NCBI RefSeq assembly: GCF_019402445.1 | Contig: NZ_SRZM01000073.1 | Location: forward strand, 1 to 31,324 | DNA: 31,324 bases | Direction: 5' to 3' | From: Brachyspira pilosicoli | GTDB taxonomy: Bacteria > Spirochaetota > Brachyspiria > Brachyspirales > Brachyspiraceae | Shown: positions 1,853 through 2,335 of the stretch, one piece after another | Layout of the letters: each line of letters starts with the position of its first letter | Position numbering within the stretch: position 1 is the stretch's first letter | The notes under the pieces: generated by a model | Told to the model about the DNA's origin: nothing | The model's input: the letters and a program-made list of their open reading frames with translations, nothing else | Database searches by the model: none | Program-made: the position numbers and the translations under genes

Positions 1853-2335
1853 ATGAGTATATATGACTATACAGTAAAAGATGCTGAAGGCAAAGATGTA
1901 AAATTAAAAAAATATGAAGGAAAAGTTTTACTTATAATTAATAGTGCTACTAAATGAGGGTTTACTAAACAATATTCTGCGTTGCAGGATTTATACAAAA
2001 AATATAAAAAAGATGGTTTTGAAATATTAGACTTTCCTTGTAATCAATTCGGCGGACAGGCAAAAGATCCTATTGAAGAAATTGCTGAGTTTAGAAAAGA
2101 AAAATACGGCGTTACTTTTAAGTTATTTGATAAAGTAAAAGTTAATAGCAAAAATGCTGACCCTTTATTTACTTATTTAAGAACAGAAAAACCAACAGAA
2201 GAGGGTGTTGATAAAATAAGATGGAATTTCGGTAAATTTTTAATAGATAGGCAAGGTAATATAGTAGGTCGTTATGACCCTAGGGTAAAACCTGAAGAAC
2301 TCGATGAGATAGTATCAGAGTTATTAAAAAAATAA
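1853..2335 (+). CDS. Selenocysteine-containing glutathione peroxidase (TGA at 1955-1957 read as Sec)
   Basis: Glutathione peroxidase family (thioredoxin fold), reducing hydroperoxides. The ATG at 1853 has AAGGAG about 8 bases upstream and opens a frame beginning MSIYDYTVKDAEGK, the usual family N-terminus. Codon 35 is TGA, in the context NSATK-U-GFTKQY, exactly where the family has its catalytic Cys or Sec. After it the frame runs without break to a 160-residue product, the normal length. The remaining tetrad is present: Q69 (FPCNQFGGQ), W124 and N125 (IRWNFGKFLIDRQGN). The region that carries the resolving cysteine in thioredoxin-dependent Cys enzymes (usually EF-x-C-x-x-F) has none here, as expected for a Sec enzyme. 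A SECIS-like hairpin starts 16 bases after the TGA. An automatic caller would give only a 117-residue fragment beginning at the TTG at 1982. The alternative, a chance nonsense mutation, is unlikely given the exact position. Confidence 0.9.
1974..1990 (+). promoter_or_regulatory. Bacterial SECIS-like hairpin
   Basis: ATTCTGC / GCAGGAT form a 7-bp stem (one G-U pair) closed by a three-base loop GTT. The loop begins with G, 23 bases after the TGA. Bacterial SECIS elements are short stem-loops just downstream of the UGA with a G at the start of the apical loop, and this one fits. It is inside the coding sequence and would be bound by SelB. Confidence 0.75.

What the first reader, a model, noticed from the sequence alone, without database searches (positions are those of the whole stretch)
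1853..2335. Glutathione peroxidase with selenocysteine at the catalytic position
The frame from the ATG at 1853 is interrupted only by TGA at 1955-1957, exactly where the family has its catalytic Cys/Sec. The rest of the tetrad (Q69, W124, N125) is intact, the length is normal and no resolving Cys is present. A gene caller would truncate it or call a pseudogene. It implies that the organism has the Sec machinery (selA, selB, selC, selD), which is not in this window.
Basis: partly seen in the sequence, partly recalled or inferred. Interest (0 to 1): 0.85.

Follow-up and report, generated by a model that had tools for sequence, protein, structure and literature searches.

The report
Selenocysteine peroxidase swapped between Brachyspira species
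This gut spirochaete carries a peroxidase gene whose in-frame UGA is predicted to be read as selenocysteine, and among 25 genomes of its genus the same gene has either that UGA or a cysteine codon, two versions that have likely been exchanged between species by gene-sized recombination.

Summary
The frame 1853-2335 is a complete glutathione-peroxidase-family protein interrupted only by TGA at the catalytic position. The genome has the full selenocysteine (Sec) machinery: tRNA-Sec, selA and selB in a row on one contig, selD on another. A hairpin with its loop 22-23 nt after the UGA is kept, in a 7-bp or a 5-6-bp form, in all 16 TGA orthologues of the genus and missing from 8 of the 9 Cys orthologues. 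Codons after the TGA are under purifying selection, so this is not a pseudogene. A Sec peroxidase in Brachyspira is not new: a 2010 genome paper predicted it in B. pilosicoli and B. murdochii.

What I did not find in print is the allele pattern. At mostly the same tpx-gpx locus, 16 genomes have TGA and 9 have Cys, although selB is over its cut-off in all 26 genomes searched. The gpx tree conflicts with rpoB, and in the clearest sister pair the conflict is limited to about 650 bases around gpx. So the version has likely been replaced between species by recombination. One genome (G025) has TGT with the hairpin intact, a probable recent loss of Sec. Which form is older is unresolved. No protein data exist here.

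The parts
1853..2335 (+). gpx: glutathione-peroxidase-family gene, 160 codons plus TAA, predicted to be read through UGA as Sec
   Evidence: orthologue in 25 of 26 genomes of the genus
1955..1957 (+). in-frame TGA, codon 35, catalytic position (predicted Sec)
1974..1990 (+). predicted bacterial SECIS hairpin, 7-bp stem, apical loop GUU at 1981-1983, loop 23 nt after the UGA
   Evidence: missing from 8 of 9 Cys orthologues
2057..2059 (+). Gln69 of the catalytic tetrad
2222..2227 (+). Trp124 and Asn125 of the catalytic tetrad
1840..1844 (+). AGGAG, likely ribosome-binding site
   Evidence: read directly
1982..2335 (+). truncated ORF (TTG start, 117 aa) that the ORF list gives in place of gpx
1279..1776 (+). 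tpx, thiol-peroxidase-like (Redoxin) neighbour in the same orientation; a match lies upstream of gpx in 24 of 25 orthologous loci
   Evidence: ATG at 1279 chosen by eye, the listed ORF starts at TTG 1249

Best explanation
The gene is a glutathione-peroxidase-family enzyme whose UGA codon 35 is predicted to be decoded as selenocysteine by the SelB/tRNA-Sec system that this genome encodes. Inferred steps: the hairpin at 1974-1990 would recruit SelB loaded with Sec-tRNA; the Sec would act as a one-residue peroxidatic centre with Q69, W124 and N125; and, because the resolving Cys is absent, the oxidised selenium would be reduced by outside thiols (thioredoxin, or glutathione from the host, since the one glutathione-synthesis family searched gave no hit in this genome). 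Shown by comparison: across the genus mostly the same tpx-gpx locus carries either a TGA or a Cys version, the gpx tree conflicts with the rpoB tree, and in one sister pair the conflict is limited to gpx and its near flanks. Inferred from this: the versions have been exchanged between species by homologous replacement of short tracts.
For: Machinery in the window's own genome, all over curated cut-offs: tRNA-Sec C50:13615-13702 (59.9 vs 47 bits), selA C50:13833-15137 (457 vs 268), selB C50:15235-17019 (304 vs 242), selD C90:13725-14642 (356 vs 125). A second gene with in-frame TGA, grdA, in the same genome. TGA in 16 of 25 orthologues and a Cys codon in the other 9. dN/dS after the TGA 0.017-0.094 in 6 pairs. 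Hairpin: 95.6% of 91 cells paired in the TGA set (13 distinct rows of 16) against 66.7% of 63 in the Cys set, which includes the intact G025; as stable a hairpin within the bSECIS loop and spacing limits arises in 0 of 3000 synonymous recodings for G000, 1 for G011, 57 for G016, 66 for G010 (4 of the 16 TGA rows tested). Fold: AlphaFold mean pLDDT 88.4; the 50 PDB matches listed are GPx-family, TM 0.92 to 2wgr and 0.87 to Sec-GPX4 6elw. Exchange: rpoB (24 of 25 genomes) puts Cys G022 with TGA G001/G015 (100/99), Cys G017 with TGA G024/G016 (100/100), and Cys G002/G019/G023 beside a TGA group (96/96), while gpx puts the five Cys genomes together or next to each other; the AU test on gpx rejects all 3 rpoB groups tried (p 2.8e-4, 6e-3, 2e-38). 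G017 is 0.93-0.98 identical to its sister G024 across tpx and the upstream flank, 0.81-0.91 inside gpx and again 0.91-0.99 at 2251-2925, with 0.93-0.97 to G019 inside gpx; best tract 1489-2135, 0 of 20000 shuffles as good.
Against: No protein evidence. The hairpin misses one published bSECIS criterion, MFE <= -7.5 kcal/mol (PMC13188914, passage); here -6.1 to -6.3. Folding of the whole 66-nt stretch is not unusual (z -0.60, 48 of 200 shuffles as good). No pair shows a change on both sides against the commonest pair, 4 of 7 pairs never vary, and none of the five measures beats the column shuffles. The tract test also flags small segments in controls (G016 1444-1455, 3 of 20000; G023 404-440, 6 of 20000, with gpx-versus-flank Fisher p 0.0012), and its shuffles ignore rate differences between genes. 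For G022 the gpx-versus-flank contrast is weak (Fisher p 0.04 and 0.009), and for G019 and G002 the best tracts (644-2278, 507-2206) take in tpx as well, so not every tract is one gene long. The rpoB groups were chosen after the trees were seen. Direction of the Sec/Cys change is unresolved: with G009 left out the TGA rows plus G025 are no longer one clade (AU p 0.17 for one clade).
Confidence: 0.93

Rival explanations
1. The gene is a pseudogene or the TGA is a sequencing error; translation ends at codon 34.
For: The ORF list gives only the piece 1982-2335.
Against: The same TGA is in 16 of 25 orthologues and no other stop stands there; the frame after it is open in all 16 with dN/dS 0.017-0.094 in 6 pairs; selA, selB, selD and tRNA-Sec are present.
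Confidence: 0.02
2. TGA is read as another residue (Trp, by code 4 or by a suppressor) and not as Sec.
For: One database cluster (P0002) has Trp at residue 35, as if a caller had read TGA as Trp.
Against: The position is Cys in every orthologue without TGA (9 of 9); TGA ends 2 of the 23 window ORFs used for codon counts, and the orthologue in G011 ends in TGA, so it is not a general sense codon; the Sec machinery is present.
Confidence: 0.03
3. The disagreement of the gpx and rpoB trees comes from repeated Sec/Cys conversions with convergent change elsewhere in the gene, not from exchange between species.
For: At least one conversion in place is likely: G025 has TGT within a TGA group and keeps the hairpin.
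Against: Codon 35 and the hairpin columns were removed before the trees were built and the conflict remains; G017-G024 third positions differ too (identity 0.709, against 0.854 for G017-G019); in G017 the best break points lie close to the gene's edges.
Confidence: 0.1

Closest known systems
Predicted Sec glutathione peroxidase of Brachyspira pilosicoli (BP951000_2065/2066) and B. murdochii (PMC2897892)
   Same: Same genus and family; Sec site predicted there; two locus tags for it in B. pilosicoli. Passages read.
   Different: The passages read give no SECIS, no alleles and no survey of the genus.
Sec glutathione peroxidase of Treponema denticola (Gpx listed in a table of PMC1794560, passage)
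   Same: Sec predicted at the catalytic position; a Treponema-like row tested here (G048) also lacks the resolving Cys.
   Different: G048 is 46% identical and placed apart from the Brachyspira clade in the protein tree, so likely a separate origin; its branch is long, and its name as Treponema is inferred.
Human GPX4
   Same: Fold and tetrad; TM 0.87 to the Sec form 6elw, 39% identity.
   Different: Here the predicted SECIS lies inside the coding region; substrate and donor unknown.
Cys-type two-cysteine GPx (yeast Hyr1, poplar GPX5)
   Same: Among the best sequence and fold matches.
   Different: Hyr1 has Cys at the position of Arg81 (alignment); this protein does not.
Cys homologues with remnant SECIS (M. 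succiniciproducens FdhA, D. hafniense HesB-like; PMC1794560, figure legend)
   Same: G025 is of this kind: Cys codon with an intact hairpin.
   Different: There other families; here one gene within a genus, with likely exchange of alleles besides.

Membership tests
Glutathione peroxidase family (PF00255) | Curated profile match | tested here: met
   134.9 bits, cut-off 27; Cys written for Sec
Glutathione peroxidase family (PF00255) | Catalytic tetrad Cys/Sec, Gln, Trp, Asn | tested here: met
   codon 35 TGA, Q69, W124, N125; the tetrad itself is recalled knowledge
Glutathione peroxidase family (PF00255) | GPx fold | tested here: met
   model pLDDT 88.4, TM 0.92 to 2wgr; modelled with Cys for Sec
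Glutathione peroxidase family (PF00255) | Peroxidase activity with glutathione | not testable with these tools
   no assay; the GshA-GshB fusion family gave no hit in 25 of 26 genomes and only sub-cut-off ones in G007; none of 14 controls was over the cut-off
Bacterial selenoprotein | In-frame UGA aligned with Cys of homologues, frame conserved beyond it | tested here: met
Bacterial selenoprotein | selA, selB, tRNA-Sec and selD in the genome | tested here: met
Bacterial selenoprotein | bSECIS: loop 3-9 nt, stem 4-16 bp, G in the first two loop bases, loop 16-37 nt from UGA | tested here: met
   loop GUU, 7 bp, 23 nt; criteria from PMC13188914 (passage)
Bacterial selenoprotein | bSECIS: MFE <= -7.5 kcal/mol | tested here: not met
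   -6.1, -6.3; the sequence window and program of the published criterion may differ
Bacterial selenoprotein | Se incorporated into the protein | not testable with these tools
   needs 75Se or mass spectrometry
Two-cysteine (thioredoxin-type) GPx | Resolving Cys in the helix after the FPCNQF motif | tested here: not met
   Arg81 in 25 of 25 Brachyspira orthologues; Cys in 22 of 23 out-group rows and 75 of 75 genome-contig loci

The most novel reading that the evidence does not exclude
Selenocysteine and cysteine versions of one peroxidase circulate in a bacterial genus as exchangeable alleles: short-tract recombination swaps gpx, hairpin included, at a fixed locus, while the recipients keep the Sec machinery, so that Sec use changes gene by gene through allele replacement as well as by point mutation.
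Probability: 0.72. Interest if true: 0.65.

Novelty: new member of a known kind. Interest (0 to 1): 0.5.

Why it matters
Why some lineages use Sec and others Cys at the same catalytic site is an old question. Here close relatives with the same machinery carry one or the other at mostly the same locus, including a probable fresh loss (G025: TGT with an intact hairpin) and a sister pair (G017, G024) that differs far more in this gene than in the genes beside it. These natural pairs would let the gain from selenium be measured on closely similar proteins. Practically, the gene is truncated or split by standard calling.

Tried and rejected
Pseudogene and sequencing error: rejected on 16 conserved TGA frames and purifying selection. 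Trp reading: rejected on Cys in all 9 orthologues without TGA. 'No resolving Cys' as a mark of Sec: dropped, since the 9 Cys orthologues lack it too. Loss of Sec machinery as the cause of the Cys forms: rejected, selB is over cut-off in 26 of 26, selA and tRNA-Sec in 25 of 26 (the missing one is G007, 86% complete, which has a selA fragment at a contig end and no orthologue). Covariation as proof of the hairpin: tried, gave nothing. Whole-stretch folding against dinucleotide shuffles: not significant. One origin of Sec inside the genus: favoured by the gpx tree with G009 (99/98) and weakly by proteins (82/85), not resolved without G009. Tract tests out to 3480 were misled by the far flank (for G017 against G024 the best segments fell at about 3056-3322) and were rerun on 1-2250. 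Glutathione synthesis: only the fused GshA-GshB family was searched. Outer rows of the protein tree: 23 of the 85 non-orthologue loci held (L044-L048, L054-L128, L189-L193) were used.

Not in print: searches of the PMC library for Brachyspira with selenocysteine, selenoprotein, glutathione peroxidase or gene transfer agent with homologous recombination, and for selenoprotein with recombination terms (0 papers), gave no report of allele exchange in the listings and passages I saw. Searches listed 12 of 14 and 15 of 32 papers. I read passages only of PMC2897892, PMC5330540, PMC13188914, PMC1794560 and PMC9312934; all other papers were seen as listings (as well).

Full report
WHAT IS THERE. The genus is Brachyspira, judged from named loci that match gpx at 85-97% (L049-L053). 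The frame 1853-2335 encodes 160 residues with one internal stop, TGA at codon 35. It is a glutathione-peroxidase-family protein by profile (PF00255, 134.9 bits), by solved homologues and by predicted fold (pLDDT 88.4; the 50 PDB matches listed are GPx-family). Q69, W124 and N125 are present. An AGGAG lies 8 bases before the ATG.

MACHINERY. The same genome holds tRNA-Sec, selA and selB in a row on contig C50 (13615-17019) and selD on C90, all above curated cut-offs. In the 14 control genomes the selB and selD families ring in all 14 but are over the cut-off in 2 each; selA rings in 4 (1 over the cut-off); tRNA-Sec rings in 14 (5 over the cut-off; 3 at the stricter E-value). So single weak matches mean little, and it is the four over-cut-off matches together that count. 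grdA with an in-frame TGA is in this genome and in 10 others (11 of 26).

COMPARISON IN THE GENUS. Of 26 genomes, 25 have an orthologue; G007 (86% complete) has only a distant paralogue. The codon is TGA in 16 (G000, G001, G003, G004, G006, G008, G010-G016, G018, G020, G024, where G010-G016 means all seven), TGC in 7 (G002, G005, G017, G019, G021, G022, G023) and TGT in 2 (G009, G025). All 25 keep Q, W and N and all 25 have Arg at the resolving-Cys position, so that lack does not mark Sec. Of the 80 loci kept from genome contigs (of 397 confirmed), the 5 Brachyspira ones have TGA and the other 75 a Cys codon; those 5 lie on contigs of the same sizes as those of G004, G013, G024, G010 and G011 and are not independent. 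In the phylum, 180 of 392 genomes have a match; among the rows listed (the list is cut), TGA occurs outside Brachyspira only in G048, G059, G138 and G167, all of one genus, and G059 also has a TAA.

SECIS. Sixteen bases after the UGA (1974-1990) lies AUUCUGC-GUU-GCAGGAU. It is in 13 of the 16 TGA rows as it stands and in G016, G024 and G010 in a form with 6, 6 and 5 pairs and a 5-base loop; the third pair is U-G, U-A or C-G. Of the 9 Cys rows only G025 has it; in the other 8 no hairpin within the loop and spacing limits scores below -0.1 kcal/mol. Synonymous recoding of the same peptide by the window's codon usage reaches the observed stability in 0 of 3000 (G000), 1 of 3000 (G011), 57 of 3000 (G016) and 66 of 3000 (G010) trials; these 4 of the 16 TGA rows were tested. 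Against it: the energy limit of -7.5 kcal/mol is not met, whole-stretch folding is ordinary, and covariation is not shown. I take it as the SECIS because it goes with TGA across the genus and is missing from nearly all Cys forms.

SELECTION. dN/dS of codons 36-158 is 0.017-0.094 in 6 pairs of TGA orthologues. A stop that ended translation at codon 34 would not leave this.

ALLELE EXCHANGE. A tpx match lies upstream of gpx in 24 of 25 loci (not within the stretch held for G021), so the locus is mostly the same; the genes further downstream vary. The rpoB tree (24 of 25 genomes, 15 of 21 inner branches starred) needs 5 changes of Sec/Cys state, as do selA (25 genomes) and tpx (24 genomes), against 2 on the gpx tree with codon 35 and hairpin removed and 3 with G009 also left out. 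Three rpoB groups tested on gpx are rejected, and the TGA rows plus G025 as one clade are rejected on rpoB (p 4.7e-65). The groups were chosen after seeing the trees; no such test was run for selA or tpx. In the clearest pair, G017 (Cys) and G024 (TGA), identity is 0.973 in rpoB, 0.972 in tpx and 0.867 in gpx, while G017-G019 (both Cys) gives 0.917, 0.938 and 0.949. The best tract is 1489-2135, where gpx is 1501-1980: 98 of 114 informative sites go against the sister inside and 147 of 173 with it outside. Just downstream (2026-2250) G017 is 0.77-0.89 to all three genomes compared, then 0.91-0.99 to its sister up to 2925. G015 and G001 (TGA) show a tract 1515-2044 towards G012 (TGA). All 7 test triplets gave 0 of 20000 shuffles as good; of the 5 controls, G024 gave 6330, G000 577, G003 280, G023 6 and G016 3, each with a segment of 12-37 bases and none of them inside gpx. 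In G023 the gpx sites nonetheless lean towards G017 (Fisher p 0.0012), which may be exchange among Cys genomes or a weakness of the test. For G019 and G002 the tract takes in tpx. A gene transfer agent is known in the genus (PMC2897892, passage) and is a possible vehicle, untested here.

DIRECTION. With G009 and outer rows, Cys is at the base and the TGA rows plus G025 form one clade (99/98 in DNA; 82/85 in protein), which would mean Sec gained inside the genus in a protein already without a resolving Cys. Without G009 the five Cys rows form a clade (89/98) among unresolved TGA rows. I leave the direction open. G025 is firmer: it sits in the group with G000, G006, G014 and G018 (100/100), and TGT with an intact hairpin reads as a recent Sec-to-Cys change, if the assembly is right.

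FUNCTION. The likely chemistry is that of a one-centre Sec GPx: selenol oxidised by peroxide, then reduced by two outside thiols (general GPx knowledge, recalled). No genome had a hit over the cut-off to the fused glutathione-synthesis family; 25 of 26 had none at all, and 3 of 14 controls rang below the cut-off. Thioredoxin or host glutathione is then the likelier donor; this is inference, and separate gshA or gshB genes were not searched on their own.

WHAT IS KNOWN. PMC2897892 (passages read) predicted Sec in GPx of B. pilosicoli and B. murdochii in 2010. PMC5330540 (passages) found SelD and tRNA-Sec but no known selenoprotein family in two B. hampsonii strains, and two thioredoxin-like selenoproteins in all Brachyspira examined; this fits the 5 of 9 Cys-GPx genomes here without a grdA match (G002, G005, G019, G023, G025) that keep the machinery. 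PMC1794560 (passages) lists Gpx among the selenoproteins of T. denticola and describes Sec/Cys conversions with remnant SECIS. So the finding is real and known in kind; the new part is the pattern of exchange.

Noticed in passing
L019 (G025), codon 35 of gpx: TGT in place of TGA with the SECIS-like hairpin letter for letter intact: a probable very recent Sec-to-Cys change.
   Followed up: partly
protein P0002: A database cluster of 150 members, 96% identical to this protein, has Trp at residue 35, as if TGA had been read as Trp by a gene caller.
   Followed up: no
G001, G002, G003, G004, G007, G008, G011, G012, G013, G015, G019, G020, G022, G023: 14 of 26 genomes carry a further, distant GPx gene (49-55% identical) without an internal stop; the one read, in G007 (L044), has both the catalytic and the resolving Cys. 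The window's genome shows none.
   Followed up: no
L182 and 10 other loci: grdA (glycine reductase selenoprotein A) with one in-frame TGA in 11 of 26 Brachyspira genomes, patchy across the genus.
   Followed up: no
G059:C1:1523255-1523722: A Treponema-like Sec-GPx relative with a TAA besides the TGA, perhaps decaying.
   Followed up: no
window 19618-19722: TPP riboswitch (60.9 bits).
   Followed up: no
window 11576-11648: tRNA-Thr(GGT).
   Followed up: no
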